NCBI GenBank assembly: GCA_023399455.1
Contig: JAEWPN010000246.1
Coordinates: forward strand, 1 to 16,219
Source of the DNA: Bacillota bacterium
GTDB taxonomy: Bacteria > Bacillota > Clostridia > Lachnospirales > Lachnospiraceae
Direction: 5' to 3'
DNA: 16,219 nucleotides
Shown here: positions 274-16,062 of the stretch, piece by piece
Position numbering within the stretch: position 1 is the stretch's first letter
Layout of the letters: each line of letters starts with the position of its first letter
Notes under the pieces: generated by a model
What the model saw: only the letters and a program-made list of their open reading frames with translations
Database searches by the model: none
Told to the model about the DNA's origin: nothing
Made by a program: the position numbers and the translations under genes

Positions 274-3018
274 ATGAAAAAAGAACATAGCAAATCCGAT
301 AATGCTATTAGGGATAACGAAATGAATAATTTTGATATCGTGAAAGAGCTGGATTTCATGGAATTGGATGAAAATGGCTTTTATGACGATGAGGATGAGT
401 ATTTCGAAGAGGAATATACGGCGGTTCCTGTGAAAAAGAAATCTGCTTCTAAAAATGAGAAAATTGTCTCTGAAAATGAGAAAATTATCTCAAAAAATAA
501 GAAAATTGCTTCTGAATATAAGAGAAGTACTTCGGTAAGGAAAGGACACACATCTAAGAAGAAACAAAGCGCTCCGTTAAAGAAGAAAAATACATCTGTC
601 AAAAAAGGAAATACATTGGAGAAGCGGGAAAGTACTTCAATAAAGAAGAAAAGTGCTTCAGCCAAAAAGACAAAAGTATCAACAGCAAATAGGGCTAAGA
701 GCTCCCGGAGTAGAAGAAATAACGGTAAAGAAAGCCGCTTATGGTACAAAATAAAATGTATGGATACCATCGATAGAGTCGTTGCGACTACCGGTGTTTT
801 GATTATGGTGTTCGCCATTGTGACGTGTACGATGTATGCGGACGCGAAAGTGGCCGATATGCAGGTGGCTTCTTTTCAGGAGATCGGTGCCGGAATGGAA
901 GGAATCGAGGTTATCGGCGAAAGCGGACTTCTGGCAGTGGCTGATGCCCAGGCAGCTAAGGTGGCTGTTCAGGAAGAAATGACCGAGGCGGCGGAGTACG
1001 ATGAGAAGGAACTGGAGACGACAGAGTCGATCAAAGTTGAGATGCATCTTAGTTCCATGCAAAAGGACTTAAAAATAAAATTCGTGAACAGCACGACCGG
1101 CAAGCTGGTCGCCAGCATACCTTTTGAAGTAAATATTACGGATGCAGGCGGGAAAACGTATACGCTGAAGGATGAAGATAAGGACGGAATTATTTATAAG
1201 ACCGATATGGCGGCAGGTAAATGCAGTGTTGCCATGGCAAGTATTTCCGGTGCGGAGGATTATACTTTTTCTACGGAAAGTGTATCGGTGACTATAAAGG
1301 ATAAAATCGAATACAAGAAAGTGGATGTTTCCGATGAGGTAAAGAAGGAATCGGATGTTAACGTTGCGGCGGAAGATACGAAGAAGCAGGATACCACAGT
1401 GGAATCTGTGCTTACGGATACGGTAGCGTGGGTGGAATCAACTAAGACGGCATTAAATGGATCAGGAAGCGAGGCCGGTTATGAGGAAGTGCCGAAGGAT
1501 AAGATCACGGATCCTAATACTCTTGTAAAAGCGAGTGAATTCATGCGCTTTGCGGCAACGACCACGGACCAGACGACGGCGGTTACCACCACGACTCCTA
1601 CGGATACGACCACAACGCCTACGGACACAACAACTCCCACGATTACGGAGATAAAGGTTAGCCTGGACAAAACCAGCCTTCCCTTGAAGACAGGTGAGAC
1701 TGCTGTTTTGACGGCAACTACGGATCCTGCAGGTAATGCGGTGGAATGGAACAGCAGCAATGCGGGAATCGTATCGGTGACGGGAGGAACTGTCGTTGCG
1801 GTGAGCGCCGGGACGGCGGATATTACAGCCAAGACATCTACCGGACATATAGCGACCTGTACGGTAACAGTTACGGAGCCGGAGAAGGTGAAGCCGACGA
1901 TTACGATCAGTGCGGCAACCGGCAAGGTGCTTACGGAAAAGACGCTTAAGCTTACTGCGGAAGTAAAAAATGCGTCGGATGCTTCCGTGACATGGTCTTC
2001 CAATAACGACGCGGCAGCGATGGTAGCAAGCGACGGCACGGTAACCGGTGTGAGTGCCGGAACGGCCACGATTAAGGCGATGAGCAATGCGGATAATTCT
2101 GTTGCGGCAACCTGTGAAATTACCGTTAAGGCCAATCCGGAAAAAGACAGCTCCACCAAGTTGAAGGACAACGACGGCAATCAGCTCTATGTTAAGGAAA
2201 CGGACAGCAAATTAAGAGAAGCCGTTTATTCTGATTATTTCAAGGCGGATAAATTTTATAAGGTATCCTCTGTGAGTGCCGAGTACAAATATACCGGCTG
2301 GCAGACTATCGACGGCAAGACCTATTATTTCAATGCAGACGGCAATAAGGTAACCGGTGAGCAGATTATCCAAGGGGCGAAATATAATTTCGGCAGCGAT
2401 GGAGCATTAGCATCCTCTTCGGGAAATATGGGAATCGACGTATCCAAGTGGAACGGAAATATCGACTGGAACGCAGTAAAGAATTCCGGTGTATCTTATG
2501 TAATCATCCGTTGCGGTTATCGTGGTTCCAGCACGGGCGCCCTGATCGAGGATCCGAAGTTCCGGTCCAATATTCAGGGAGCTTCGGCGGCAGGCCTTAA
2601 GGTGGGAGTATATTTCTTTACTCAGGCTGTAAACGAGGTGGAGGCAGTAGAGGAAGCCTCTATGGTAGCGAGCTTGATCAGCGGTTACAAAATATCCTAT
2701 CCGGTGTTTTTGGATGTGGAGCCCAGCGGCGGACGGGCGGATAGCATCGGCAAGGATACAAGGACTGCGGTTTGCATGGCATTCTGCCAGACCATTCAGA
2801 ACTCAGGGTATACGGCGGGAATCTATGCGAACAAGACATGGCTGACCTCCTATATTAATACGGCAAGCCTTACCAGCTATAAGATATGGCTGGCTCAATA
2901 TGCGGCGGCCCCCAGTTACTCGGCGACGAAGTATGATTTGTGGCAATATTCCTCCAAGGGCTCGGTATCGGGCATAAGCGGTTCCGTGGATTTAAATATC
3001 AGTTATCTGGGATATTAA
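274..3018 (+). CDS. Membrane-anchored GH25 muramidase with BIG2 and cell-wall-binding repeats
   Basis: This 914-residue protein is a predicted peptidoglycan-cleaving lysozyme held in the membrane with its catalytic domain outside. Seen in order: an acidic N-terminus (about 1-50), a Lys/Ser-rich heptad-repeat tail (57-133), one membrane segment (about 169-189) preceded by basic residues, which predicts an N-in topology, a module with a DEDKDG loop (about 257-350), a Thr/Pro linker (438-456), two BIG2-type Ig-like domains (457-534 and about 540-619), a cell-wall-binding repeat with GWQTIDGKTYYF (674-712) and a GH25 domain (719-914). The expected GH25 acidic residues are present: D722 in GIDVSKW, D814 and E816 in FLDVEP, and D906 near the end. 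The catalytic domain is a close paralogue of the one encoded at 5172-6560. The 5' third is clearly more AT-rich than the rest. A muramidase fold is very likely; its role in polymer attachment is inferred from its neighbours. Confidence 0.93.
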   Translation: MKKEHSKSDNAIRDNEMNNFDIVKELDFMELDENGFYDDEDEYFEEEYTAVPVKKKSASKNEKIVSENEKIISKNKKIASEYKRSTSVRKGHTSKKKQSAPLKKKNTSVKKGNTLEKRESTSIKKKSASAKKTKVSTANRAKSSRSRRNNGKESRLWYKIKCMDTIDRVVATTGVLIMVFAIVTCTMYADAKVADMQVASFQEIGAGMEGIEVIGESGLLAVADAQAAKVAVQEEMTEAAEYDEKELETTESIKVEMHLSSMQKDLKIKFVNSTTGKLVASIPFEVNITDAGGKTYTLKDEDKDGIIYKTDMAAGKCSVAMASISGAEDYTFSTESVSVTIKDKIEYKKVDVSDEVKKESDVNVAAEDTKKQDTTVESVLTDTVAWVESTKTALNGSGSEAGYEEVPKDKITDPNTLVKASEFMRFAATTTDQTTAVTTTTPTDTTTTPTDTTTPTITEIKVSLDKTSLPLKTGETAVLTATTDPAGNAVEWNSSNAGIVSVTGGTVVAVSAGTADITAKTSTGHIATCTVTVTEPEKVKPTITISAATGKVLTEKTLKLTAEVKNASDASVTWSSNNDAAAMVASDGTVTGVSAGTATIKAMSNADNSVAATCEITVKANPEKDSSTKLKDNDGNQLYVKETDSKLREAVYSDYFKADKFYKVSSVSAEYKYTGWQTIDGKTYYFNADGNKVTGEQIIQGAKYNFGSDGALASSSGNMGIDVSKWNGNIDWNAVKNSGVSYVIIRCGYRGSSTGALIEDPKFRSNIQGASAAGLKVGVYFFTQAVNEVEAVEEASMVASLISGYKISYPVFLDVEPSGGRADSIGKDTRTAVCMAFCQTIQNSGYTAGIYANKTWLTSYINTASLTSYKIWLAQYAAAPSYSATKYDLWQYSSKGSVSGISGSVDLNISYLGY
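442..672 (+). repeat. Eleven tandem 21-base units coding a Lys-rich heptad repeat
   Basis: Residues 57-133 of the first GH25 protein can be written as eleven consecutive seven-residue units without any gap, for example SASKNEK, IVSENEK, IISKNKK, STSVRKG, NTSVKKG, STSIKKK. Most units have Ser or Thr at position 1 and/or 3, and basic residues around positions 4-7. The DNA units are diverged, so this is not a recent expansion. The segment lies on the cytoplasmic side of the predicted membrane anchor. Confidence 0.85.
1585..1641 (+). repeat. Thr/Pro linker made of TTTTPTD heptads
   Basis: Residues 438-456 of the first GH25 protein read TTTTPTD twice and then a partial TTTPT. This low-complexity linker connects the membrane-proximal part to the Ig-like domains. 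It is probably a flexible wall-spanning spacer and a likely place for copy-number change between strains. Confidence 0.75.
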
Positions 3019-3048
3019 TTAATTATTCTTTATAAATTGCGGTGAATA

Positions 3049-3077
3049 TTGCAAAGAGAAGAATAATGAGCTATAGT
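3049..3077 (+). promoter_or_regulatory. Probable promoter for rmlB
   Basis: TTGCAA (3049-3054), a 17-base spacer and TATAGT (3072-3077) form a reasonable sigma-A promoter in the gap after the first GH25 gene. The start site would be near 3084. That places the in-frame GTG at 3042 and ATG at 3066 outside this transcript and supports the ATG at 3111 as the rmlB start. No terminator is visible between the GH25 stop at 3018 and this promoter, so readthrough is also possible. Confidence 0.5.
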
Positions 3078-3110
3078 GAGAATAAAAAACGGAAAGGCAT
3101 GTTAAACATT

Positions 3111-4193
3111 ATGAAAACTTATCTGGTAACGGGCGGGGCAGGCTTTATCGGCTCTAATTACATTCATTACATGTTTAAAAAATATGGAAACAATATTAAG
3201 ATTATTAATGTGGACGCCCTCACCTATGCGGGAAATCCCGAGAATCTGAAGGAAGTGGAAAACAAAGATAATTACGAATTCATTAGGGCGGATATCTGTG
3301 ATAAAGAAGCGATCTCTAAAATATTTGAAAATAACGACATCGACAGAGTCGTACATTTCGCGGCAGAAAGCCATGTGGACAGAAGTATCCGTAATCCGGA
3401 GGTGTTCGTGCAGACCAATGTTCTCGGAACAGCAGTAATGCTTAACTGCGCAAAGAGTGCCTGGGAGCTTGAGGATGGCAGCTTTAAGCCGGACAAGAAG
3501 TTTCTGCATGTATCTACGGATGAGGTATACGGCTCTTTGGAAGAAGACGGCGAATATTTCTATGAGACTACGCCGTATGCGCCTCACAGTCCTTATTCCG
3601 CAAGCAAGGCCGGTTCGGATATGCTGGTAAAGGCATATATGGACACTTACCATTTCCCTGCGAATATAACCAATTGCTCTAATAACTACGGCCCTTATCA
3701 ATTTCCGGAGAAGTTGATTCCCCTCATTATCAACAATGCACTTCAGGGAAAGAACCTTCCGGTATACGGAGACGGCAAAAATGTCAGGGACTGGCTGTAT
3801 GTGGAAGATCATGCCAAGGCGATTGATATGGTTCAGGAGAAGGGAAAGCTCTTTGAGACTTACAATGTGGGCGGACATAACGAGAAGCAAAATATCGAAA
3901 TCATAAATATTATCATAGAAACGCTGCAGGAAATGCTTCCTGAGAACGATCCGCGTAAGAAGCTGGTAAGCAAGGACTTGATTACTTACGTGGAGGACAG
4001 AAAGGGCCATGACAGAAGGTATGCCATAGCACCGGATAAAATCAAAGCGGAAATAGGCTGGGAACCGGAAACCATGTTCAAGGAGGGCATCAGACTGACG
4101 ATTCAGTGGTTCTTCGAGAATGAGGACTGGATGAAGAATGTTACCAGCGGAGAATATCAGAAGTATTATACGGATATGTATAGCGGAAAGTAA
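3111..4193 (+). CDS. rmlB: dTDP-glucose 4,6-dehydratase RmlB
   Basis: RmlB converts dTDP-glucose to dTDP-4-keto-6-deoxyglucose, the second step of dTDP-rhamnose synthesis, in the cytoplasm with bound NAD. The 360-residue protein starts with the Rossmann motif GGAGFIG (8-14), carries the catalytic TDE triad in STDEVYG (T136, D137, E138) and has the YxxxK pair Y162 and K166 in PYSASKAGSD. These are the hallmark residues of the family, and the length is usual. I chose ATG 3111 because the family normally begins just before the YLVTGGAGFIG strand and because a promoter appears to lie just upstream. GGAAAGG at 3091-3097 is the likely ribosome binding site, with a rather long 13-base spacing. In-frame starts at 3099, 3066 and 3042 are alternatives. 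A terminator follows the gene, so it is separated from rmlA. Confidence 0.96.
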   Translation: MKTYLVTGGAGFIGSNYIHYMFKKYGNNIKIINVDALTYAGNPENLKEVENKDNYEFIRADICDKEAISKIFENNDIDRVVHFAAESHVDRSIRNPEVFVQTNVLGTAVMLNCAKSAWELEDGSFKPDKKFLHVSTDEVYGSLEEDGEYFYETTPYAPHSPYSASKAGSDMLVKAYMDTYHFPANITNCSNNYGPYQFPEKLIPLIINNALQGKNLPVYGDGKNVRDWLYVEDHAKAIDMVQEKGKLFETYNVGGHNEKQNIEIINIIIETLQEMLPENDPRKKLVSKDLITYVEDRKGHDRRYAIAPDKIKAEIGWEPETMFKEGIRLTIQWFFENEDWMKNVTSGEYQKYYTDMYSGK

Positions 4194-4312: not shown

Positions 4313-5182
4313 ATGAAAGGAATTATTCTTGCAGGTGGAAGCGGAACACGCCTCTATCCATTGACGAAAGCGATTTCGAAACAGATAATGCCGGTTTACG
4401 ACAAGCCGATGATATATTATCCGCTGTCAACCCTAATGCTGGCAGATATCAGGGAGATACTAATTATATCTACACCCAGGGATGTGCCCGTATTCGAGGA
4501 TTTATTCGGCACGGGAGAGCAGCTTGGCATCGAGATTCAATATGCGGTCCAGGAATATCCCAGGGGGCTTGCGGATGCCTTTATCATCGGAGCGGATTTC
4601 ATAGGAAACGATAGCGTGGCGTTGGTACTGGGCGACAATATTTTTTATGGACAGAGCTTCTCCAGGGTGCTTCGCGAGGTTGCGGAGAGAGAAAAGGGAG
4701 CGACCATTTTCGGATATTATGTCCGCGACCCCAGGGAATACGGAGTGGTAGAGTTCGACGAAAAAGGGAAAGCTCTTTCTATAGAAGAGAAGCCGGAAAA
4801 CCCGAAAAGTAACTATGCGGTGCCGGGGCTGTATTTTTATGACAATGACGTGGTGGAAATTGCCAAGAACGTAAAGCCTTCCGCACGCGGTGAAATAGAG
4901 ATTACGAGCGTAAATAACGAATACTTGCGCCGTGGAACGCTGATGGTGGAGACGCTGGGAAGAGGCTTTGCATGGCTGGATACGGGGAATCATGATTCTC
5001 TTCTGGATGCGGCGGATTTTGTATCTGCATTCCAGAAAAGACAGGGGCTATACATTTCCTGCATTGAGGAGATAGCCTATAAGAGAGGATTTATTACGAA
5101 GGAACAGCTCCTTAAGCTGGCGGAACCATTGATGAAGACAGATTATGGAAAATACATGATAGAGGTTGCTAATGGGCTCTAA
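4313..5182 (+). CDS. rmlA: Glucose-1-phosphate thymidylyltransferase RmlA
   Basis: RmlA joins glucose-1-phosphate and dTTP to give dTDP-glucose, the entry step of dTDP-rhamnose synthesis. The 289-residue protein has the usual full length and shows the nucleotidyltransferase signature GGSGTRLYP (8-16), the following [17 protein letters not shown] stretch (23-39), and the metal-binding aspartates expected in LGDNIFYGQ (D108) and WLDTGNHDS (D223). The ATG at 4313 is preceded by AAAGGAG at 4294-4300. It is the first gene after a terminator and promoter, so it heads the operon. Its last 11 bases overlap the start of the second GH25 muramidase, which suggests translational coupling. The enzyme is a classical target of feedback inhibition by dTDP-rhamnose (family knowledge). 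Confidence 0.97.
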
Positions 5183-6560
5183 GCTGAAGAATGTGACTGT
5201 TTTTCTGGTCATTATAATGTTTGCAGCGGTAATAGGAAGCGTATTATATGCAAACAAGGATATTTTTAACAAAAATGAAGAACAAGAGGTATTTGCCGAA
5301 GTCCAGGAGAGCGGAGAAACGCAGACAGATGCTCAGGCAGACCGGATAGGCTCGGATGAGCGTGCGTTTTTAACGGATGAAACCTTTTTTGACCCGGACA
5401 GAAAGCCTTATTCTTCTATAGAGAAAATGAGCGAAAAAAATCTGTCCCTGCTCATGACTTCGATAGAAAAGGATCTGCGTATTCAGATCGTGGATAACGC
5501 GGGTAAGCTCGTGAAGGGGGAGACCTTTTGCGTGGTCCTGAATGGAGATAAGGAATATTTGGACGAGGATCAGGACGGTGTCATTTACATCGACCATCTT
5601 CGTGCCGGATTCTATGAAGTGACCTTGAAGGAGACGGTGGGCTATCGTGTGCCGGATACGTCGGCCAGAATTGAAGTGAAGCAGAGCGTGGAATATGCGG
5701 CGATCGACGATATCAGCCTGCTCATATTTACGGAGGATGACGTAGACCCTGCATTGGAGGATCTGGAAGTAAACGGTGCTGAAGATGATGCGGACAATAC
5801 TGAGATAACCAAGATGCAGGCAAGCAACCCCAATGCTAAGATCGGTATCGACGTTTCAAAGTGGAACAAGGAAATTGACTGGGATAAAGTAAAAAATGAA
5901 GGCGTGGAATTCGCGATTATCCGTGTGGGTTATCGTGGAGCTACTACGGGCGCGCTGATTGAGGATCCTTATTTCCGAACCAACATAAAAGGTGCCCTGA
6001 ACGCAGGTATTCCTGTAGGAGTATACTTCTTCACGCAGGCGGTGAATACTGTGGAAGCGGTGGAAGAAGCCAGCATGGTTATAAATATGTGTAAGGATTA
6101 CGATATCAGTTATCCGGTTTTCATCGACACGGAGGGCGCGGGCGGCAATGGACGGGCGGACGGCCTGGAACTGGAGGCGCGCACGCAGATATGCAAAGCC
6201 TTCTGTATTACGATGGAAAGTGCCGGATATAGAGCGGGCGTATACGGAGCAAGAAACTGGTTTAACGAGATGTTAGATATGAGCTTGTTAAAAGACTATG
6301 TCGTATGGCTTGCAGAATACAGAGATGTGCCGGTATATCAGGGCTACTACCACATGTGGCAATATACCTCCGGCGGGAGCGTGGACGGAATCGAAGGAAA
6401 GGTAGACTTTAATTTAAGTTATCTGAAAATAGAATCACCTAAGGCGGATGAGGCCGAGAATGCCGAGGGAATCACAACACCGCCGAAGATAGGGGAGTCC
6501 CTTGACGGAGAGGTAGCGGAGCCCAAAACAATCGGCGGAACAGAGAATGCTGACTGGTAG
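5172..6560 (+). CDS. Membrane-anchored GH25 muramidase, second copy
   Basis: This 462-residue protein is a shorter relative of the first muramidase. It has one N-terminal membrane segment (about 8-27) after a short basic start, a linker, a module with a DEDQDG loop (about 91-180) that matches the module in the larger paralogue, the GH25 domain (224-418) and a Pro/Glu-rich tail (419-462). The catalytic acids are kept: D227 in GIDVSKW, D319 and E321 in FIDTEG, and D412. The BIG2 domains, cell-wall-binding repeat and basic heptad tail of the first copy are absent. I chose ATG 5172, six bases after AGAGG (5161-5165), over an in-frame TTG at 5166. The start overlaps the end of rmlA by 11 bases and rmlC follows, so the muramidase sits inside the rhamnose operon. 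It likely cuts glycan strands outside the membrane where the polysaccharide is attached; that role is inference. Confidence 0.93.
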
Positions 6561-6658: not shown

Positions 6659-7216
6659 ATGGGAAAGATAACGGTAGAGACATGTGAGATAGAAGGGCTT
6701 AAAGTAATTACGCCTGCAGTTTTTGGAGATTCCAGGGGATATTTCATGGAAACATATCATTATGAGGAGTTCAAAGAGGCTGGAATCGATCAGATTTTTG
6801 TTCAGGACAACCAGTCGGCTTCGAAAAAGGGCGTGCTTCGGGGATTGCACTTCCAGAAGGAATTTCCTCAGGACAAGCTGGTAAGGGTAGTAAGCGGAGA
6901 AGTGTTCGACGTGGCGGTAGACTTGAGAGAAGGAAGCCCGACTTTTGGCAAGTGGTTCGGCGTGGTACTGTCTGCAGAGAATAAAAAACAGTTTTTTGTC
7001 CCGAAAAATTTTGCACATGGATTTCTTGTACTGTCCGATGTTGCGGAGTTCGCATATAAATGCACGGATTTCTATCATCCGAACGATGAGGGAGGCCTGC
7101 TTTATAATGACCCCGATATCGGGGTAAAATGGCCGATTCCGGAAGGAATGGAACTTATCATGTCTGAGAAGGACACGAAATGGGGCGGCATAAAGGAATA
7201 TGCCCGGGAGAAATAG
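6659..7216 (+). CDS. rmlC: dTDP-4-dehydrorhamnose 3,5-epimerase RmlC
   Basis: RmlC epimerises dTDP-4-keto-6-deoxyglucose at C3 and C5 to give dTDP-4-keto-L-rhamnose. The 185-residue cupin protein has the usual full length. It shows DSRGYF (24-29), the catalytic histidine in LRGLHFQ (H64), the FAHGF strand (118-122) and the conserved tyrosine in AYKCTDFY (Y133), followed by HPNDEGG. An AAGGAG site lies at 6638-6643 with a long 15-base spacing to ATG 6659. The gene follows the second muramidase and precedes the export permease, whose start lies eight bases after its stop. The last enzyme of the pathway, RmlD, is not encoded in the window. Confidence 0.97.
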   Translation: MGKITVETCEIEGLKVITPAVFGDSRGYFMETYHYEEFKEAGIDQIFVQDNQSASKKGVLRGLHFQKEFPQDKLVRVVSGEVFDVAVDLREGSPTFGKWFGVVLSAENKKQFFVPKNFAHGFLVLSDVAEFAYKCTDFYHPNDEGGLLYNDPDIGVKWPIPEGMELIMSEKDTKWGGIKEYAREK

Positions 7217-7224
7217 GACGTCGT

Positions 7225-8241
7225 ATGGTTAATGATTCACTCAATTTGAAAATAAAAAGTATTCCTAAGAGGGCGGCGATCGCAGCATTTTATCTTATTG
7301 CCCTCATTCTGGCAGGGATCGTAGTGATGCATCACAATCCGCTTGCAGATCAGACCACAGAGCTTATGAAAAAGGTGATGGCGTGCGTGCTCATCGCTTT
7401 TACCTGCGTGATATTCGGTATATTTTATGAAAGGCTTACGGTGCTGCCCAAGGAGCTGCTTCAGAACCGGAGGCTGATATGGAAGCTGGCGAAGAACGAT
7501 TTTAAAAAGAGGTATGCCGGCTCTTATCTCGGTATGGTATGGGCCTTCGTACAGCCGGTGGTAACCGTGGTCATGTACTGGATCGTGTTCGACAGGGTAT
7601 TCGATACGAGAAGCCAGCTTGTTGCGGGCGGGATAGAGGTTCCTTACGTCTTATACCTGACAGCGGGACTGGTTCCGTGGTTTTATTTTTCGGAAGCGCT
7701 GAGCAATGGGACGACGGCACTCATGGAATATAATTATCTGGTCAAAAAGGTAGTTTTTAAAATCAGTATTTTGCCTATTATCAAGGTAATTGCGGCTACT
7801 TTCATACATGTATTTTTCGTGGTGGTTTTATTGCTTATTGCCATAGCATACGGCTATTATCCCAGCATATACACGCTGCAGGTTTTTTATTACAGTTTCT
7901 GTGAATTCGTGCTGGTGCTCGCCATCAGCTATTCGACCTGCGCAATTGTTGTATTTTTCAGGGATTTACAGCAGATCATAGGTATTGTTCTTCAGATCGG
8001 TATGTGGGCAACGCCTATTTTATGGGACATATCCATGCTGAGCGATACGATGAAGCCTTTATTCAAGCTGAATCCTATGGTTTATATCGTGAATGGCTAT
8101 CGCAGCGCCGTGTATGAGCAGGAATGGTTTTTTGAACATTTTTATTCCTCTACTTATTTTTGGATTTTTACGGTTACGCTGTTTTGCATCGGTTCTTTGA
8201 TTTTCAAAAGGCTGAAGGTACATTTTGCGGATGTGATGTAG
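7225..8241 (+). CDS. ABC-2 type polysaccharide export permease (Wzm/TagG/RgpC-like)
   Basis: This 338-residue membrane protein is the channel half of an ABC exporter for lipid-linked polysaccharide. The family core begins at about residue 78 with the typical cytoplasmic interface helix and the stretch RYAGSYLGMVWAFVQP (96-111), followed by several hydrophobic segments. Before it lies an additional region of about 75 residues with two predicted membrane helices (about 17-35 and 51-68). Usual members are about 260-280 residues and lack this part. I chose ATG 7225, with AGGA at 7215-7218 overlapping the rmlC stop. An in-frame start at 7180 would add 15 residues and overlap rmlC. It pairs with the ATPase encoded 37 bases downstream. 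The substrate is inferred to be the rhamnose-containing glycan made by this cluster. Confidence 0.93.
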   Translation: MVNDSLNLKIKSIPKRAAIAAFYLIALILAGIVVMHHNPLADQTTELMKKVMACVLIAFTCVIFGIFYERLTVLPKELLQNRRLIWKLAKNDFKKRYAGSYLGMVWAFVQPVVTVVMYWIVFDRVFDTRSQLVAGGIEVPYVLYLTAGLVPWFYFSEALSNGTTALMEYNYLVKKVVFKISILPIIKVIAATFIHVFFVVVLLLIAIAYGYYPSIYTLQVFYYSFCEFVLVLAISYSTCAIVVFFRDLQQIIGIVLQIGMWATPILWDISMLSDTMKPLFKLNPMVYIVNGYRSAVYEQEWFFEHFYSSTYFWIFTVTLFCIGSLIFKRLKVHFADVM

Positions 8242-8278: not shown

Positions 8279-9556
8279 ATGGAAGAAAAGAAAATAGCGA
8301 TACAGACCAAGGAATTGGAAAAAGTATATAGATTATATGATAAGCCTTCGGACCGGATGAAAGAAGCCTTTGGACTATTGGGAAAGAAGCGCTACAAGGA
8401 GCACCATGCGCTGGATAAGGTGGACATGACGGTATATCAGGGCGAGACGGTTGGAATCATCGGAACCAATGGATCGGGAAAATCCACGATTTTGAAAATC
8501 ATTACGGGAGTGCTTAATCCCTCTGGGGGTGAGGTAGCCGTGAACGGGCGCATTTCTGCACTTCTCGAACTGGGCGCAGGCTTTAATATGGAATACAACG
8601 GCATAGAAAACATTTACTTAAACGGTACGATGATCGGCTTTTCGGAAAAGGAAATCGGGGAGAAGATGGATGCCATACTGGATTTCGCGGATATCGGCGA
8701 CTATGTGTACCAGCCGGTCAAGACATATTCCAGTGGAATGTTCGTGCGGCTGGCATTTGCGGTGGCAATTAATATTGAACCGGAAATATTGATTGTTGAC
8801 GAAGCCTTGTCGGTGGGCGACGTATTTTTCCAGGCAAAGTGCTATCATAAATTTGAAGAATTCAAGAAAATCGGAAAGACGATTTTATTTGTCAGCCATG
8901 ATTTAAGCAGCATCAGCAAATATTGTGACAGAGTAATACTGCTTAATAAGGGGAAAAAGCTGGGCGAAGGTTCACCTAAGGAGATGATAGACGTCTATAA
9001 GAGAGTGCTGGTCGGGCAATATGCGATTGAAGATGAAGATAAAGAGAACCTTTTAAACGACAGTGATTTGAGAGAGGCAGCGGCCGTGAAAGCGGGAGTC
9101 AATCCTGATTTGCTTGAATATGGAACTAAGGTGGCTTGTATAACGGAATATTATATTACGGACAGCGAAGGGATAAGGACTACGGCTGTCATAAAAGGGC
9201 ATGAATTCACGATTCATATGAAGGTAGAGTTTTCTGAGGACGTTCCGGCACCTATATTTGCATTTACGGTTAAGAATATAAGAGGTACCGAGATTACAGG
9301 GACGAATACCATGTTCGAAAAAACATTTTTAGAGCCGGTAAGCGCCGGAAGTGTAAAGATGATTACTTTCAGGCAGAAGATGAGCCTTCAGGGGGGAGAA
9401 TATCTGTTGTCTTTAGGAGTGACCGGATATGAGGACAATGACTTTGCCGTATATCACAGGCTGTACGATGTAATTAACGTTACGGTAATATCGGATAAGG
9501 ATACGGTAGGTTATTACGATATGGACACGGAGGCTGAGGTAAGCGACTGTATTTAG
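8279..9556 (+). CDS. Polysaccharide export ABC ATPase with Wzt-type C-terminal domain
   Basis: The 425-residue ATPase powers export by the upstream permease. Motifs seen: Walker A GTNGSGKST (62-70), signature YSSGM (150-154), Walker B ILIVDE (170-175) and the switch histidine in VSHD (H207). After the nucleotide-binding domain ends near 250, a further domain of about 150 residues (roughly 270-420) has the alternating strand pattern of the Wzt C-terminal glycan-binding domain. In E. coli O9a this domain binds the capped non-reducing end of the polymer and selects chains for export; ATPases of the TagH/RgpD type often lack it or carry other tails. GGAG at 8265-8268 precedes ATG 8279. The next gene encodes a methyltransferase-kinase fusion, the kind of enzyme that makes such caps. 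The ATPase call is firm; the glycan-binding domain is assigned by pattern. Confidence 0.94.
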   Translation: MEEKKIAIQTKELEKVYRLYDKPSDRMKEAFGLLGKKRYKEHHALDKVDMTVYQGETVGIIGTNGSGKSTILKIITGVLNPSGGEVAVNGRISALLELGAGFNMEYNGIENIYLNGTMIGFSEKEIGEKMDAILDFADIGDYVYQPVKTYSSGMFVRLAFAVAINIEPEILIVDEALSVGDVFFQAKCYHKFEEFKKIGKTILFVSHDLSSISKYCDRVILLNKGKKLGEGSPKEMIDVYKRVLVGQYAIEDEDKENLLNDSDLREAAAVKAGVNPDLLEYGTKVACITEYYITDSEGIRTTAVIKGHEFTIHMKVEFSEDVPAPIFAFTVKNIRGTEITGTNTMFEKTFLEPVSAGSVKMITFRQKMSLQGGEYLLSLGVTGYEDNDFAVYHRLYDVINVTVISDKDTVGYYDMDTEAEVSDCI

Positions 9557-9585
9557 CAACAGACCAGGGCAAAAGGAGAACTGAT

Positions 9586-11727
9586 ATGAATGTTTCTTCA
9601 AACATAGAGCAGATTGGGAAAATAGTTCTTGATTATAAATATTATCCGGGCGAGGACCTTTATTGTGACGGAGAGGTAGAGGATGAGATTCTGGACATCG
9701 TTAAAAACTACTCTCCTATAGAATATAGGCGTATTATCGAAGAACGGGCAAAATGGCCGGTTCTCTATCATTTGTCCCCTCTCAGGGAAAATATTGTGGA
9801 CTGGGTTCCTATGGATAAGGATGCGAAAGTGCTGGAGGTTGGAGCCGGCTGCGGTGCAATTACGGGCAATCTTGCCAAAAAGGCGGGAAGCGTTACCTGC
9901 ATCGACTTATCTAAGAAGAGAAGTATGATCAATGCCTATAGACATCAGGACTGCGATAACGTCACCATACATGTGGGGAATTTTATGGACATAGAACCGG
10001 AGCTGCCGAATGATTTCGATTTTATCTATTTCATTGGTGTATTCGAGTACGGTCAGAGCTATACCGGAACGGTCCGCCCCTATGAGGATCTGCTCAAGAT
10101 GATGCTTCGTCATTTAAAAAAGGACGGGAGAATCATTATTGCTATCGAAAACAGACTGGGACTTAAGTATTTCGCCGGATGCAGGGAAGACCATCTGGGG
10201 ACTTATTTTTCGGGAATTGAGGATTATGCGCAAGGCGGAGGCGTGCGTACCTTTACGAGAGAGGGACTGGAGAATATTTTTCATGCCTGCGGGGTAAAAG
10301 ACTATTCCTTTTATTATCCCTACCCTGACTATAAGTTTATGACTGCCTTGTATTCTGACGGGAGGCTCCCGATGCCCGGAGAGCTGTCGGAGAATAATAG
10401 GAATTTTGATAGAGACAGAATGTTGCTCTTCGATGAGAAGCAGGCTTTCGATGCGGTGATAAAGGATGGACTTTTCCCTGTGTTTTCCAACTCTTATGCT
10501 GCGGTTATCGGAGATGATTTCGATATAAAGTATGCCAAATATTCCAATGATCGTTCGCCGGAGTATGAGATTCGTACGGAGATATGTATTGATGGAGAAG
10601 GGAAAAAGATAGTAAAAAAACATGCGTTATCGAATGAAGCCATAGATCATATCAAAAGCATGGAGACGGCATACATCGATTTGAGGCAAAGATTTGAGGG
10701 CGGTAAGCTCCGGGTCAATAAGTGCAGCTTATGTGAGGACGGTAAATCAGCTCAGTTTGAATTTGTAGAAGGATTAACGCTGGAGGAGATTCTGGACGGA
10801 TGTCTGGAGAGAAATGAAATTGATAAATTCCATGTGTTATTTAAAGAATATCTGGAAAGAATTTCTTATCATGAGGAGATGCCGGTGGCAGATTATGATT
10901 TGATTTTTTCCAATATATTGATTACACCGAAAGAAGTTTCGGAAGAAATGAATGATAAAGCAGAAGAGGATTCTTCTTTGGATGAGTCAGGCCTCAAGGT
11001 GATAATGGATGGAGCTTGGACTATCATAGATTACGAGTGGACTTTCGGTAAGCCGGTCAGTGCTAAGGAAACGGCTTTCCGCGCAGTGTATTGCTATGTT
11101 CTCGAAAATGAGAAGCGAAATAAACTCAATTTGGATGCGATAATAGAAACCCTTGGTATTACCGAAAGGGAAGCGGAGGAGTTCCGTGAGCAAGAGATGG
11201 GATTTCAGGAGTTTGTTACAGGAAAACATAAATCTATGGCACAGATGCGTGATGCCATAGGCTATAAGATCATGGAGCCGCTAAAGTGGGTGCATAAGTT
11301 TGATGATTCTTCCGAGAAGGAAAGAATACAGATTTATGAAGATCGGGGAAACGGATATTGTGAGGAGGATTCCTATTTCGTAAGAGATGCTTATGAAGGG
11401 GAGAATCTGATTCGTCTGGAGTTGGAGACGGCTGGAAACGTTAATATGCTTCGTATAGATCCGGCCATGGATTATTGTGTCGTACGGGTGAAAGAGCTGA
11501 CCTTTAACGGAATGGCGGTGGAACCTGGCAAGAAGAATATTATCACTAATGGAAAGAGCCTGAAGGATGGGAGTTACGTGTTCGCTACGGAGGATCCTAA
11601 TATAAATATCCGACTGGGAAATTTGGATAGGATGGATAGGAATGAAATCGTCGCAGAAATGGAAATTGTGCGCGTGCCGGAAGAAATCGCGAAGGATATG
11701 GCGGGAGCGGTGAAGAAGATATGGTGA
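9586..11727 (+). CDS. SAM-dependent methyltransferase fused to a kinase-like domain (WbdD-like layout)
   Basis: This 713-residue cytoplasmic protein begins with a class I methyltransferase domain (about 45-290): motif I is VLEVGAGCGA (82-91), the acidic residue ending strand 2 is D107 in CIDLS, and LKKDGRIIIAIENR is the usual late motif. The middle part (about 305-500) looks like a protein-kinase or aminoglycoside-phosphotransferase fold: a lysine pair at 344-345, a hinge-like FEFVEGLTLEEIL (391-403), a catalytic-loop pattern D438-x4-N443 and a metal-binding-type D482 in IIDYEW. About 560-713 is a beta-rich region I cannot name. The order methyltransferase then kinase and the length of about 700 match E. 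coli WbdD, which caps O9a chains with methyl-phosphate. The neighbouring ATPase has a Wzt-type domain, which fits a capping role. AAAAGGAG sits seven bases before ATG 9586. The methyltransferase is certain, the kinase likely, the capping role inferred. Confidence 0.85.
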   Translation: MNVSSNIEQIGKIVLDYKYYPGEDLYCDGEVEDEILDIVKNYSPIEYRRIIEERAKWPVLYHLSPLRENIVDWVPMDKDAKVLEVGAGCGAITGNLAKKAGSVTCIDLSKKRSMINAYRHQDCDNVTIHVGNFMDIEPELPNDFDFIYFIGVFEYGQSYTGTVRPYEDLLKMMLRHLKKDGRIIIAIENRLGLKYFAGCREDHLGTYFSGIEDYAQGGGVRTFTREGLENIFHACGVKDYSFYYPYPDYKFMTALYSDGRLPMPGELSENNRNFDRDRMLLFDEKQAFDAVIKDGLFPVFSNSYAAVIGDDFDIKYAKYSNDRSPEYEIRTEICIDGEGKKIVKKHALSNEAIDHIKSMETAYIDLRQRFEGGKLRVNKCSLCEDGKSAQFEFVEGLTLEEILDGCLERNEIDKFHVLFKEYLERISYHEEMPVADYDLIFSNILITPKEVSEEMNDKAEEDSSLDESGLKVIMDGAWTIIDYEWTFGKPVSAKETAFRAVYCYVLENEKRNKLNLDAIIETLGITEREAEEFREQEMGFQEFVTGKHKSMAQMRDAIGYKIMEPLKWVHKFDDSSEKERIQIYEDRGNGYCEEDSYFVRDAYEGENLIRLELETAGNVNMLRIDPAMDYCVVRVKELTFNGMAVEPGKKNIITNGKSLKDGSYVFATEDPNINIRLGNLDRMDRNEIVAEMEIVRVPEEIAKDMAGAVKKIW

Positions 11728-11738
11728 TTTGGTGATTG

Positions 11739-11806
11739 CGATTGCGAAACTGGCAGGGATAGAAAGTTTTATGTGTAATTTTGGGAGACTGTGAAGTTCG
11801 CAATTG
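11739..11806 (+). other. Leader hairpin before the TTG-started glycosyltransferase gene
   Basis: CGATTGCGAA (11739-11748) can pair with TTCGCAATTG (11797-11806): nine Watson-Crick pairs and one G-U pair, closing a 48-base loop. The 3' arm covers the upstream TTG (11804) and ends just before the ribosome binding site at 11814-11818. The loop holds a tiny reading frame (ATG 11771 to TGA 11792-11794). The region from the stop of the methyltransferase gene also holds the direct repeat TGGTGATT. A functional role is speculative. Confidence 0.3.
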
Positions 11807-11813
11807 GAAGTTG

Positions 11814-11827
11814 AGGAGAGGAATTTG
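11814..11827 (+). promoter_or_regulatory. Ribosome binding site that decides a TTG start
   Basis: AGGAG (11814-11818) lies six bases before an in-frame TTG (11825-11827), ideal spacing. The other candidate, TTG 11804, has only GGGAG at 11783-11787, sixteen bases away. No ATG occurs in frame near the beginning of this gene. Confidence 0.6.
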
Positions 11828-13969
11828 GGCGGTGGAATAAAGGCGTGGTTAAAAGAAAAGTTGATAGAGGGGCAGCGTAAACGGTATGATAGGTTGTTCG
11901 AGGAAAAGAGCGTTTCGTATGACGAGTGGATTCGAAAGAGGGAAGACGCTCTGAGGGATAGCCTTGCGGAAGAGACGAAAGCGTATGGTGGAAGAACGCT
12001 TAGTATCAAGCGGGTTCCGTATGAGGCGGTGAAGGATTATTTGACGGCAGGCGGTGCTGATAAAGAGGCGGCGGATATCGTTCTGTTTCAGGCGTCTGGC
12101 GGAAAATGTGCAGTGCTGGCGGAAGAACTAATCAATGACTTTTTTCTTGCGCATCCGCAGATTTCCGTGGCTTATGGAGATGAGGATGTACTGAGTCCTG
12201 ACGGAATCAGATATACGCCATGGCTGAAGCCTGACTGGTCTCCTGATACTTTTCTGTCCTGCTTTTATTTTGGCTCCATATTTGCGGTGCGCACTAATGC
12301 CTTAATGGAATTGTCTAAGGAGGAGATACTTGGCATCGGAGGAAAAGAGGCTGAGGACGACCGTGTGTGGATTTATCATATGTGCCGTCTATTGGCTCAG
12401 AAGGCAGGTGGTTTTGAAAGGAGACAAGAAAGAAATCCGGATGAATTTCCTGTGGGACATATCGATGAAATCCTGTTCCATTCTTTTTTGAACAGGGAAG
12501 GAGAACTGCTTTACAATGAGGGCAGTTATCCTTATGAAAGCAGCACTTCTGATGAAAGCTGCTGTTTCAGTGAACATATTCCTTCCGATGAAGATATCAC
12601 TTCCGGTAAAATAGAGAAACAACTTATTTCTATCATTATCCCTTCCAAGGATAATGAGAAAGTTCTGAAACGATGTATAGAGTCGGTAAAGAATTCGGCA
12701 GGGATGCCTTATGAAATAATTTTGGTGGATAATGGGAGCGAGGAGCGGACCAGGGAGGGCTTGAATGCTTATTTAAGCGGACTCGGCATTAAGTATACTT
12801 ATATTTATGAGAAGATGCCCTTTCATTTTTCTGCTATGTGCAATAAGGGAGCGACAGCGGCAGCGGGTGAAGTGTGCTTGTTTCTCAATGATGATGTAGA
12901 GGTGCCGGGGGTAAAGAAAGCGGACGAACGAAAGTTATCCGGCTGGCTGGAAAGGCTCTATGCGGAGGCAATGAAGCCCTACACAGGTGCCGTCGGGGTC
13001 AAGCTGTTATATCCTGATTCCAATAGAGTGCAGCATGGCGGTATTGTAAATTCGCGTTTGGGGCCGGTGCATAAGCTTCAATTCAAAGATGATAACGATC
13101 GTTATTATTATGGATGGAACCGTGGCATGAGAAATGTCATCGCGGTAACGGGGGCTTGTCTTTCCGTAGCGAAGGAGAAGTTCGAGGAGGTGAACTGCTT
13201 TCCTGAGGAACTGCCAGTGGCCTTTAATGATGTGGACTTATGCTTTTCCTTGTATGAGAAAGGATATTATAACGCTGTTTTACAAGAGGTGACGTTATAT
13301 CACTATGAATCGCTTAGCAGAGGGCAGGATCGAGAACGGGATAAGCTTGAGCGGCTGCTCGCAGAAAAGAGGAAACTCTACGCCCGGCATAGAGAGCTTT
13401 ACGGGAAAGATCCCTTTTATCATAAATATCTGGCAGGAGATATGCTTTCTTCGGGCTTTGAGCTTAGGGCAGATTACGATTGGCAGGAGGGTATGCCTTA
13501 TGGGAAGGTTATAAAGGCTGACGGGCTGCTTAAGGACGCCAGGGAGGATGCATGCGTCATGATCAGTCTGGAATATGCAGGAACTGTGGAGGAATGGCGC
13601 TGTGGCATAGAGCCGGAGTATGAACGGGGCAATCATATGCAAGATTATTATATACAAGGGTATTCCTTTGTAGCAGGTTCGGATAACGCGTGTTATGAAA
13701 AGGCGATTATACTGGAGAGAATAAGTACCGGGTCAGAATCTTTAGAAGGAGAACACGGGCTTTATACAGTCTCACCGGAGATTCTTCTTCGAAAGGACGT
13801 GGAGAGGAATCTTCCGGATCAGGTTAATGTTGGAATGGCAGGTTTCGGAGCAGTGCTTCGGGGTGAGGATGCCGAAAAGGGAAATTACAGGTTGGGGATT
13901 CTTGTTAAAGATAAATGCTCCGGTCAGAAGCTTTATTCATGGACGAACCGTTACCTGAATATTAAGTGA
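11825..13969 (+). CDS. Family 2 glycosyltransferase, RgpF-like, with degenerate N-terminal GT module
   Basis: This 714-residue protein (721 from the alternative TTG 11804) has one complete GT2 domain at about 265-540: ISIIIPSKDN (268-277) begins the nucleotide-binding fold, NDD (355-357) stands at the DxD position, and NDVDLC (468-473) is the late acidic motif of rhamnosyltransferase-type GT2 enzymes. The N-terminal part (1-265) keeps the second half of another GT2 module, with YGDEDVLS (117-124) and KPDWSPDTFLS, but lacks an opening PxYN strand, and FQASGG (88-93) replaces the acidic sugar-nucleotide motif. It is probably non-catalytic. The last 170 residues are beta-rich and unassigned. Start choice rests on AGGAG six bases before TTG 11825. 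It likely adds rhamnose or another sugar to the growing chain at the inner membrane face; donor and linkage cannot be read from sequence. Confidence 0.9.
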   Translation: MGGGIKAWLKEKLIEGQRKRYDRLFEEKSVSYDEWIRKREDALRDSLAEETKAYGGRTLSIKRVPYEAVKDYLTAGGADKEAADIVLFQASGGKCAVLAEELINDFFLAHPQISVAYGDEDVLSPDGIRYTPWLKPDWSPDTFLSCFYFGSIFAVRTNALMELSKEEILGIGGKEAEDDRVWIYHMCRLLAQKAGGFERRQERNPDEFPVGHIDEILFHSFLNREGELLYNEGSYPYESSTSDESCCFSEHIPSDEDITSGKIEKQLISIIIPSKDNEKVLKRCIESVKNSAGMPYEIILVDNGSEERTREGLNAYLSGLGIKYTYIYEKMPFHFSAMCNKGATAAAGEVCLFLNDDVEVPGVKKADERKLSGWLERLYAEAMKPYTGAVGVKLLYPDSNRVQHGGIVNSRLGPVHKLQFKDDNDRYYYGWNRGMRNVIAVTGACLSVAKEKFEEVNCFPEELPVAFNDVDLCFSLYEKGYYNAVLQEVTLYHYESLSRGQDRERDKLERLLAEKRKLYARHRELYGKDPFYHKYLAGDMLSSGFELRADYDWQEGMPYGKVIKADGLLKDAREDACVMISLEYAGTVEEWRCGIEPEYERGNHMQDYYIQGYSFVAGSDNACYEKAIILERISTGSESLEGEHGLYTVSPEILLRKDVERNLPDQVNVGMAGFGAVLRGEDAEKGNYRLGILVKDKCSGQKLYSWTNRYLNIK

Positions 13970-14028: not shown

Positions 14029-16062
14029 ATGCAGGAAGAAAAGACGGATTATAATGAAAATTATTATAAAGAGGCCTATGAAAAGGAACATATAAAATGT
14101 GCTGATTTAGCGGGCCGGATTGCGGAGCTGGAGGAAAAGAATGAGGAGCTTAGTTTTAAGATAAACCGGATTAAGAGCAATCCTGTTTGGAAAGCGAGCG
14201 CGCCCTTTCGCAAAGCTATGCATTTTCTTCTTCGTCAGCGCGGCCGTTTAAAAAACTGCGGAAATCTGAGAGGACTTGTGGCTAAGATAAAGTATAAGAG
14301 CAGAGAACGCGAAGCCATGGAATGTTTTGGTACGGCCAGCTTTCCCAATGAAGCAAGAAGAAGGAAGGAAAGAGAAAATATTTTCCCCCGAATGGTAAAG
14401 TTCAGTATTCTGGTACCGCTATATAATACTCCTAAGGAGTTTCTTACAGCTATGCTGGATTCCGTAATAAATCAGACCTATGAAAACTGGGAGCTTTGTC
14501 TTGCAGACGGTTCCGACATGGAACATTCCTACGTAGGAGAGATATGCGGGGAATACATGGAGGGGGACAAAGCGCATACTGGAGGAGAGGCCCGTATCGT
14601 TTATAAGAAGCTGGAGAGGAATGAGGGTATTTCAGGGAATACTAATAGATGCTATGCGATGGCCACCGGAGAGTATATCGGGCTGTTCGATCATGATGAT
14701 ATCCTGCATCCGTCGGTGCTTTACGAATATACCAGAGCCATAAATGAGCAGAATGCGGATTATATTTACTGCGATGAGACTACTTTCAAAAATAATGATA
14801 TCAATAAAATGCTTACTATGCACTTTAAGCCCGATTATGCTGTAGATAATCTTCGGGCTAACAATTATATATGTCATTTCAGTGTGTTCCACAGACGACT
14901 TTTGGAGGGGACAGAACTGTTTCGCAGCAAATATGACGGCAGTCAGGATCACGATATGATTCTGCGTCTGACGGACCGTGCTGAGAATGTGGTTCATGTA
15001 CCGAAGCTCATGTACTATTGGCGTTCTCATGCGGGCAGCGTAGCTTCAGGTATTCAGGCCAAGACATATGCTATCGATGCAGCGAAAGGAGCAGTGGCGG
15101 AGCATCTGCGGGGGCACGGTTACGAACATTTTAAAATATCCAGCACCAGAGCTTTTGAGACAATTTTTAAGATCAGCTATCAGATTATCGGCAATCCTAA
15201 GATTTCCATCGTTATTGCCAACAAGGATCACAAAGAGGATCTGAGCAGATGTATCACTTCTATTTTGGAGAAATCCACCTACGATAATTATGAAATCATC
15301 GTGGTGGAAAACAACAGCGAAACGCCGGAGATATGGGAATACTATGATAAACTTAAAGGAAATGAGAAAGTAAGGATAATAAATGCTGAAAAGATACAGC
15401 ATAATGCAGATAAAAAGTTTAATTATTCTGCAGTGAATAATCTTGGCGCAAAAGAAGCTGCCGGCGAGTATATTCTTCTACTCAATAACGACACGCGAGT
15501 GATTACGGTCAACTGGATGGAGGAACTGCTCATGTACGCGCAGCGTGCGGATGTGGGAGCCGTAGGTGCCAAACTCTACTATGAAAATAAGACGATACAG
15601 CACGCCGGTGTGGTTCTTGCGCTCGGTGCTCACCGTACGGCAGGTCATAGCCACTATGGACAGCATAGGGAAAATCTGGGCTACATGGGAAGGCTTTGCT
15701 ATGCGCAGGATGTATCTGCGGTAACGGGGGCCTGTCTGTTAGTTTCCAAGGAATTGTTTGAAAAAGTGGGAGGACTGGATGAATCCTTTGCCATATCCCT
15801 AAACGACGTAGATTTCTGCTTAAAGCTTAGGGAATTAGGATATTTGAATGTTTTTACCCCCTTTGCGGAGCTGTATCATTTTGAATCCATATCCAGAGGC
15901 TTGGATGATGAGGGCGAGAAGGCGGAGCGCTATAATGAGGAATCTGCAAGGTTTCGGGAGAAGTGGAAGGAGGTCCTGGAAAAGGGCGATCCCTATTATA
16001 ATCCCAATTTTTCCTTGGATCGCAGTGACTTTTCTTTGAAAATAGAGAAGAATGTGATATAA
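14029..16062 (+). CDS. Tandem family 2 glycosyltransferase with N-terminal coiled coil
   Basis: The 677-residue protein carries two complete GT2 domains. A short coiled coil (about 20-48) and a basic amphipathic stretch with SNPVWKASAPFRK (50-62), common in membrane-associated polysaccharide glycosyltransferases, come first. Domain A starts with FSILVPLYNTP (125-135) and has the metal motif DHDD (221-224), then KYDGSQDHDM. Domain B starts with ISIVIANKDH (392-401), has NND (486-488) and ends with NDVDFC (592-597) and a YHFESISRG segment typical of RgpF-type rhamnosyltransferases. Two intact active sites suggest it adds two sugars or alternates linkages in a repeat unit. AAAGGA (14017-14022) precedes ATG 14029 by six bases. 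It is the last gene of the run; a promoter for the next gene lies within its 3' end. Confidence 0.93.
   Translation: MQEEKTDYNENYYKEAYEKEHIKCADLAGRIAELEEKNEELSFKINRIKSNPVWKASAPFRKAMHFLLRQRGRLKNCGNLRGLVAKIKYKSREREAMECFGTASFPNEARRRKERENIFPRMVKFSILVPLYNTPKEFLTAMLDSVINQTYENWELCLADGSDMEHSYVGEICGEYMEGDKAHTGGEARIVYKKLERNEGISGNTNRCYAMATGEYIGLFDHDDILHPSVLYEYTRAINEQNADYIYCDETTFKNNDINKMLTMHFKPDYAVDNLRANNYICHFSVFHRRLLEGTELFRSKYDGSQDHDMILRLTDRAENVVHVPKLMYYWRSHAGSVASGIQAKTYAIDAAKGAVAEHLRGHGYEHFKISSTRAFETIFKISYQIIGNPKISIVIANKDHKEDLSRCITSILEKSTYDNYEIIVVENNSETPEIWEYYDKLKGNEKVRIINAEKIQHNADKKFNYSAVNNLGAKEAAGEYILLLNNDTRVITVNWMEELLMYAQRADVGAVGAKLYYENKTIQHAGVVLALGAHRTAGHSHYGQHRENLGYMGRLCYAQDVSAVTGACLLVSKELFEKVGGLDESFAISLNDVDFCLKLRELGYLNVFTPFAELYHFESISRGLDDEGEKAERYNEESARFREKWKEVLEKGDPYYNPNFSLDRSDFSLKIEKNVI

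What the first reader, a model, noticed from the sequence alone, without database searches (positions are those of the whole stretch)
8279..11727. WbdD/Wzt-like chain-capping and export module in an apparent Gram-positive cluster
Seen: an export ATPase with an extra C-terminal domain of about 150 residues, next to a 713-residue fusion with methyltransferase motif I (82-91) and a kinase-like core (D438-x4-N443, D482). Known: in E. coli O9a, WbdD (methyltransferase then kinase, about 700 residues) ends the polymannan with a methyl-phosphate cap, and the Wzt C-terminal domain must bind that cap for export. Inferred: this cluster uses the same logic to set the length of a rhamnose-type wall polysaccharide. 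WbdD measures length through a C-terminal coiled coil; here a beta-rich region takes that place, so any ruler must differ.
Basis: partly seen in the sequence, partly recalled or inferred. Interest (0 to 1): 0.75.

Follow-up and report, generated by a model that had tools for sequence, protein, structure and literature searches.

The report
Sugar-chain capping enzyme and matching exporter
A Gram-positive bacterium carries genes that appear to finish a rhamnose-containing wall polymer with a chemical cap (probably methyl-phosphate) that its own exporter then recognises, a strategy worked out mainly in Gram-negative bacteria and arranged differently here.

Summary
ORF 8279-9556 is a Wzt ATPase with a full Wzt_C cap-binding domain. 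ORF 9586-11727 is a methyltransferase, a kinase-fold domain and a beta-rich domain.

That is the Klebsiella pneumoniae O7 terminator ORF6-N (PMC11231755), shown biochemically to put methyl-phosphate on terminal rhamnose. ORF6 itself could not be fetched. A Pseudomonas plasmid protein with ORF6's published SAM residues at the same numbers aligns with this ORF (E 5e-42) and further on with the dual glycosyltransferase at 14029-16062 (E 4e-115). Some relatives in the same family fuse these pieces.

In 200 genomes of the family, enzyme and Wzt_C co-occur (95 of 98, against 23 of 102 without the enzyme), mostly as neighbours. The genome's only detected wall-ligase (LCP) gene lies just downstream.

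What differs: a Gram-positive wall-polymer setting, terminator and polymerase as separate proteins, and no coiled-coil ruler on the terminator. Cap chemistry, cap recognition and length control are inferred, not shown.

The parts
7180..8241 (+). Wzm, permease of the polysaccharide ABC exporter
   Evidence: Pfam ABC2_membrane E 8.5e-16; start codon not verified, the listed ORF overlaps the end of RmlC
8279..9556 (+). Wzt, ATPase of the exporter with C-terminal domain
   Evidence: Pfam ABC_tran E 1.7e-21 and Wzt_C E 1.7e-39
9116..9523 (+). Wzt_C domain, residues 280-415, predicted cap-binding domain
   Evidence: Pfam match; nearest PDB sequence 2r5o E 3.9e-10
9586..11727 (+). MTK, predicted methyltransferase-kinase chain terminator, 713 aa
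9586..10518 (+). methyltransferase domain, residues 1-311
10525..11265 (+). kinase-fold domain, about residues 314-560, with K345, D438, N443, D482
11311..11679 (+). beta-rich domain, residues 576-698, carbohydrate-binding domain by homology only
   Evidence: model; no Pfam match; profile match to the corresponding domain of long relatives
11804..13969 (+). GTa, GT2-family glycosyltransferase
   Evidence: Pfam Glycos_transf_2 E 8.6e-21
14029..16062 (+). GTb, dual GT2 glycosyltransferase, predicted polymerase partner
   Evidence: Pfam two GT2 stretches; 36% identity to the C-terminal half of the Pseudomonas fusion, E 4e-115
14089..14181 (+). GTb residues 21-51, conserved predicted short coil before NPVWKASAPFR
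   Evidence: heptad score 0.70, not above shuffles at 0.72; length conserved in 41 of 41 scorable orthologues
3042..4193 (+). RmlB, dTDP-rhamnose pathway
   Evidence: Pfam GDP_Man_Dehyd E 9e-93; RmlB by order and relatives
4313..5182 (+). RmlA, dTDP-rhamnose pathway
   Evidence: Pfam NTP_transferase E 3.6e-77
6659..7216 (+). RmlC, dTDP-rhamnose pathway
   Evidence: Pfam dTDP_sugar_isom E 4.8e-73

Best explanation
The module terminates and exports a rhamnose-containing wall polymer. GTb, with GTa and the GT2 enzymes downstream, grows the chain on a lipid carrier. MTK stops growth by phosphorylating the non-reducing terminal sugar, probably rhamnose, with its kinase domain and then methylating that phosphate with its SAM domain; its beta domain probably holds the acceptor chain. 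Wzt_C binds the finished cap, so that only capped chains pass through Wzm. The LCP protein then joins the chain to peptidoglycan. MTK and GTb correspond to the two halves of a Klebsiella O7 ORF6-type protein, split here, so length control must act between two proteins, perhaps through the short GTb coil. Shown by computation: the domains, the kinase fold and conserved residues, homology to O7-type fusions, the fusions and linkage, the identity of Wzt_C. Inferred: methyl-phosphate as the cap, terminal rhamnose as acceptor, recognition by Wzt_C, LCP attachment, the split ruler.
For: Wzt_C over the cut-off, nearest PDB sequence 2r5o. Kinase fold with K345, D438, N443, D482 in 49 of 49. A Pseudomonas plasmid fusion behind Wzm and Wzt has the six published ORF6-O7 SAM residues at identical numbers and D-x4-N at 443 (ORF6: D441) and aligns with MTK (E 5e-42) and GTb (E 4e-115). 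47 of 120 long relatives keep ORF6's exact spacing of four of its SAM positions (51 show all four motifs). ORF6-O7 makes methyl-phospho-rhamnose in vitro and its D441A mutant loses activity and export (PMC11231755 section 11 part 1 and passages). Fusions of kinase, beta domain and GTb in relatives. Co-occurrence 95 of 98 against 23 of 102; 90 of 98 upstream on the same strand within 5 kb. Priming enzyme and sole LCP gene nearby.
Against: No biochemistry on this protein. The ORF6-O7 sequence was not in hand. BLASTP and the four-row alignment A5 do not put D438 opposite the Pseudomonas D443; only A4 pairs D438 with the Asp of long relatives. The beta-domain profile finds no match in the Pseudomonas protein at E 10 and one of two BLASTP runs stops at residue 626. 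The Citrobacter relative aligns only through its methyltransferase (residues 20-366) and has Glu where D482 would be. MTK has no coil, the mark of the known systems. A known clostridial cap is cyclic phosphate, not methyl-phosphate.
Confidence: 0.6

Rival explanations
1. MTK decorates sugars along the chain or on side branches with phosphate or methyl-phosphate and does not terminate it; Wzt_C reads some other end group.
For: No ruler on MTK; several further glycosyltransferases in the cluster; fold and homology do not say which sugar is modified.
Against: The characterised relative modifies the terminal rhamnose; strong linkage to Wzt_C; fusion of the domains with the polymerase in relatives.
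Confidence: 0.15
2. The cap is a phosphate of another form (free or cyclic phosphate on terminal rhamnose), the methyltransferase domain acting elsewhere or methylating a sugar hydroxyl.
For: The C. difficile SLCT-11 S-layer glycan ends in 2,3-cyclophospho-rhamnose (PMC6254364, abstract and passages).
Against: The methyltransferase domain is conserved with its SAM motif in 49 of 49 and matches the ORF6-O7 residues apart from one Glu to Asp change.
Confidence: 0.13
3. The kinase domain is catalytically silent and the cap is O-methyl only, as in Geobacillus WsaE or E. coli O8.
For: A Gram-positive rhamnan with a 2-O-methyl cap exists (PMC2943079, passages); the Citrobacter relative has lost the D482 equivalent.
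Against: K345, D438, N443 and D482 identical in 49 of 49.
Confidence: 0.08
4. MTK is a true WbdD orthologue.
For: Same order of methyltransferase and kinase; WbdD 4ax8 at Foldseek rank 6 over 477 columns, E 6.8e-9.
Against: No WbdD among 35 of 35 rows; none among the 60 rows shown of 115; TM 0.20/0.28; no coil; the O7-type family fits over most of the length.
Confidence: 0.04

Closest known systems
Klebsiella pneumoniae O7 ORF6-N terminator (PMC11231755; section 11 part 1, section 13 part 1 and passages read)
   Same: Methyltransferase, then an aminoglycoside-kinase-like kinase, then a carbohydrate-binding-like domain; dTDP-rhamnose setting; partner Wzm and Wzt; dual GT2 polymerase with DXDD and NXD motifs, which GTb also shows (DHDD, LNND).
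   Different: ORF6 is one 1414-aa protein with a coiled coil and fused GT2 modules in a Gram-negative O-antigen locus; here terminator and polymerase are separate, MTK has no coil, and the locus sits beside an LCP gene in a Gram-positive.
WbdD and Wzt of E. coli O9a (PMC3482155, passages read)
   Same: Methyltransferase-kinase terminator and Wzt_C export checkpoint; the window's Wzt_C is nearest to 2r5o (its O9a identity is recalled).
   Different: WbdD is not found by sequence; its kinase is Src-like; it ends in a coiled coil that recruits WbdA.
Geobacillus stearothermophilus S-layer glycan, WsaE (PMC2943079, passages read)
   Same: Gram-positive rhamnan, Wzm and Wzt, terminal modification proposed to stop the chain.
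   Different: Cap is 2-O-methyl, no kinase in WsaE as described, glycan linked to protein.
Clostridium difficile SLCT-11 S-layer glycan (PMC6254364, abstract and passages read)
   Same: Clostridial rhamnose-containing glycan with a phosphorylated rhamnose at the non-reducing end and an ABC exporter; authors suggest a stop-and-export role.
   Different: Cyclic phosphate; linked to protein; the capping enzyme is not named in the passages read and its locus was not compared here.
Aquifex aeolicus WzmWzt (PMC9445017, passages read)
   Same: Wzt with a cap-binding domain that recognises the modified end of a rhamnose-rich chain.
   Different: 3-O-methyl cap, Gram-negative; weaker sequence match (E 5e-4).

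Membership tests
ORF6-O7-N type terminator | SAM-binding residues Y28, Y66, G91, G93, E112, Y158 | tested here: met
   Window Y26, Y61, G86, G88, D107, Y155: five identical, Glu to Asp at one. The Pseudomonas surrogate has all six at the same numbers.
ORF6-O7-N type terminator | Kinase domain after the methyltransferase, with a catalytic Asp at about 441 | tested here: met
   Kinase fold, D438 with N443 and D482. Pairing with the long relatives' Asp is seen in A4, not.
ORF6-O7-N type terminator | Ig-like carbohydrate-binding domain after the kinase | tested here: inconclusive
   Beta-rich domain in place; profile match to long relatives, BLASTP reach to residue 701 but 626; profile gives no hit in the Pseudomonas protein; fold not searched alone.
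ORF6-O7-N type terminator | Coiled coil behind these domains | tested here: not met
   MTK maximum heptad score 0.47, no region at threshold; a short conserved segment on GTb scores 0.70, not above shuffles.
ORF6-O7-N type terminator | Makes methyl-phosphate on terminal rhamnose | not testable with these tools
   needs enzymology or NMR
WbdD | Sequence similarity to WbdD | tested here: not met
   No WbdD row among 35 of 35 at E 10.
WbdD | Shared overall fold of methyltransferase plus kinase | tested here: inconclusive
   4ax8 rank 6, 477 columns, E 6.8e-9, TM 0.20/0.28; not among the 50 rows shown.
WbdD | C-terminal coiled-coil ruler | tested here: not met
Wzt with cap-binding domain | Wzt_C domain (PF14524) after the ATPase | tested here: met
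   E 1.7e-39, over the cut-off
Wzt with cap-binding domain | Binds the capped chain end | not testable with these tools
   needs binding assay

The most novel reading that the evidence does not exclude
Many Lachnospiraceae build a peptidoglycan-linked, rhamnose-containing wall polymer whose outer end is methyl-phosphorylated, the cap serving as an export pass; and because terminator and polymerase are separate proteins and the long coil is gone, chain length is set by something other than the known coiled-coil ruler, for example a chain-holding beta domain or a docked two-protein spacer.
Probability: 0.35. Interest if true: 0.75.

Novelty: new variant of a known kind. Interest (0 to 1): 0.55.

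Why it matters
It would carry the cap-then-check export strategy into Gram-positive wall biology, predict a specific end group on a polymer of common gut bacteria, and offer natural fused, half-fused and split versions of one machine with which to ask how chain length is measured. The O7 authors write that it is unclear what dictates how the modules are distributed (section 13 part 1); this family is a comparative set for that question.

Tried and rejected
WbdD orthology: sought and dropped; no WbdD chain is among the 50 rows shown, a list filled by the methyltransferase domain. Finding ORF6-O7 itself: 244 protein records (120, 120, four of my own translations) were held against its 12 published residue numbers over offsets of plus or minus 40; the best matched 8 of 12 and none was the protein. 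Hits of the third protein search were not put through that test. The plasmid search then gave the Pseudomonas protein; at offset 0 it matches 7 of the 12 (six SAM residues and 1232), not 441, 975, 977, 978 or 1230. RNA folding across the start of MTK: z 0.41, nothing. Coil score: GTb is conserved but not above its shuffles, and several long relatives (for example P0136, P0238, L104) do not beat theirs either, so the score is crude. Print: nothing on this terminator in Gram-positives was seen in the listings (open-licence PMC only; most hits seen as listings); the word Gram-positive occurs 0 times in the O7 paper. The C. difficile phospho-cap and Geobacillus methyl cap are the nearest.
Full report
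WHAT IS THERE. The window is part of a 4.72-Mb single-contig genome. The nearest named loci for the 713-aa ORF include Kineothrix alysoides at 81-84% identity; of the 80 loci kept from 396, most carry Lachnospiraceae or Acetatifactor titles. Gene order on the + strand: GH25, RmlB, RmlA, GH25, RmlC, Wzm, Wzt, MTK (the 713-aa ORF), GTa, GTb.

THE ATPASE. Residues 280-415 match Pfam Wzt_C at E 1.7e-39, over the curated cut-off. The nearest PDB sequence to residues 268-425 is 2r5o, E 3.9e-10, ahead of the Aquifex Wzt domain, best E 5.3e-4; that 2r5o is the E. coli O9a Wzt C-domain is from memory. The Aquifex domain binds a 3-O-methyl cap sugar and not the unmodified sugar (PMC9445017, passages).

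CLOSEST KNOWN SYSTEM. WbdD is not found by sequence (35 of 35 rows, 60 of 115 rows shown). By fold 4ax8 is rank 6 over 477 columns with TM 0.20/0.28. ORF6 of Klebsiella pneumoniae O7 (PMC11231755; section 11 part 1, section 13 part 1 and passages) has a methyltransferase, a 223-aa kinase with catalytic D441 resembling the kinase AmiN, an Ig-like carbohydrate-binding domain, a coiled coil and two GT2 modules (1414 aa). It makes methyl-phospho-rhamnose in vitro; D441A kills activity and export. I could not fetch its sequence. A Pseudomonas asturiensis plasmid protein (WP_024686765.1, 1457 aa, directly behind Wzm and Wzt) carries 6 of 6 published ORF6 SAM residues at the same numbers and D-x4-N at 443. 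It aligns with MTK (Pseudomonas 28-695 to MTK 26-701, 24%, E 5e-42) and with GTb (923-1455 to 125-676, 36%, E 4e-115); a second BLASTP run with the filter off stops at MTK residue 626 (E 1e-41). Neither that run nor alignment A5 pairs D438 with D443; the kinase profile does hit Pseudomonas 442-539 (E 8e-6), and A4 pairs D438 with the Asp of other long relatives. The beta-domain profile finds nothing in the Pseudomonas protein at E 10 but matches a profile of seven long relatives' domains (hhalign probability 82-87%; a single comparison). GTb has DHDD and LNND where ORF6 has DXDD and NXD. Of 120 long relatives, 47 keep ORF6's exact spacing of four SAM positions; 51 show all four motifs. A Citrobacter braakii plasmid has RmlBACD, Wzm, Wzt, a 649-aa methyltransferase gene and glycosyltransferases in nearly the window's order, but aligns with MTK only through residues 20-366 and has Glu in place of D482.

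FUSIONS AND LINKAGE. I fetched 19 loci of the 98 genomes with a match, mostly chosen for unusual architecture. L127, L130 and L134: a methyltransferase ORF, then one protein kinase-beta domain-GTb1-GTb2. L128: the same without a beta-domain hit. L129: methyltransferase, kinase and GT in one protein. L121-L125 and L131: single proteins of 1241-1384 aa with a GT match behind the kinase. L136: the window's arrangement. L126, L132, L133, L135, L137, L138, L139: otherwise arranged or partial. In 200 genomes of the family 98 match MTK at E 1e-20 or better and 118 have Wzt_C over the cut-off: both 95, MTK only 3, Wzt_C only 23, neither 79 (Fisher p 2e-30, ignoring shared ancestry). In 90 of 98 Wzt_C lies upstream on the same strand within 5 kb. 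The three MTK-only genomes are G473, G582 and G584. In the phylum sample 13 of 398 match at E 1e-10. Among the 80 named loci 77 have room upstream and 73 have Wzt with its C-domain within 2 kb; the misses are L003, L060, L062 and L065, and in the last three Wzt lies one gene further up. A GTb-like gene follows in 52 of 59 loci with room.

CONTEXT. Beyond the window lie phosphoglucomutase, three GT2 enzymes, a bacterial sugar transferase (priming enzyme) and an LCP protein. That LCP gene is the only one detected in the genome. RmlD candidates lie elsewhere, best E 2.4e-90. This is the inventory expected for an LCP-attached wall polymer; attachment is inferred.

HOW IT MOST LIKELY WORKS. Polymerise with GTb and partners; phosphorylate, then methylate the terminal sugar with MTK; recognise the cap with Wzt_C; export; ligate. 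The cap's chemistry rests on homology. A clostridial precedent for a phosphorylated terminal rhamnose exists: the C. difficile SLCT-11 S-layer glycan ends in 2,3-cyclophospho-rhamnose and its authors speculate on an O9a-like role (PMC6254364, abstract and passages). The Geobacillus S-layer rhamnan ends in 2-O-methyl (PMC2943079, passages). So phospho- or methyl-capping in Gram-positives is not new as chemistry. What I did not find in print (searches) is the O7-type enzyme there, its pairing with Wzt_C in about half of the sampled family, and its split form.

LENGTH CONTROL. MTK shows no coil (maximum heptad score 0.47). Long relatives carry heptad stretches of varied length behind the kinase or beta domain, though several do not beat their shuffles. 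GTb has a conserved segment (21-51) before NPVWKASAPFR, which resembles the SWRxTxPLR motif behind the coil of long relatives. Its length to the Trp is 25 in 41 of 41 scorable orthologues; 15 of 56 were not scorable. Its score, 0.70, does not exceed shuffles (0.72). A ruler in trans is a hypothesis.

LIMITS. No biochemistry; ORF6-O7 sequence not in hand; beta domain's fold not searched alone; family counts ignore ancestry; literature searches cover open-licence PMC only.

Noticed in passing
274-3018 and 5166-6560: Two secreted GH25 lysozyme-type genes sit inside the cluster; a GH25 gene is upstream of MTK in 65 of 65 named loci with at least 7 kb upstream. Why a wall-polymer cluster keeps them is unexplained.
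   Followed up: partly
L142 10849-11979 (downstream of the window): The only LytR-CpsA-Psr gene detected in the genome lies just downstream of this cluster.
   Followed up: yes
L144 3468-8873 (same genome): A second Wzt with Wzt_C (E 5.9e-26) beside a 1360-aa protein with methyltransferase, GT2 and GT1 domains and no kinase match looked for: possibly a second, methyl-capped export system.
   Followed up: partly
L020 5119-6645, L013 5212-6522: Some relatives have a membrane-protein-like gene between Wzm and Wzt; the L020 one has no Pfam match.
   Followed up: partly
10927-11013: A low-confidence insert between N443 and D482 of the kinase in this protein that many relatives lack.
   Followed up: no
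L003, L004: In the Kineothrix alysoides record MTK and Wzt appear in broken frames at contig ends, L003 with two sets; possibly assembly errors.
   Followed up: no
L034, L045: MAGs titled Gastranaerophilales and Muribaculum carry the same cluster; probably mis-binned or mislabelled.
   Followed up: no
L099 11058-13469, L100 2411-4519 and 5536-7803: The beta domain of MTK also occurs in other proteins of related clusters, twice in one of them, as a mobile module would.
   Followed up: no
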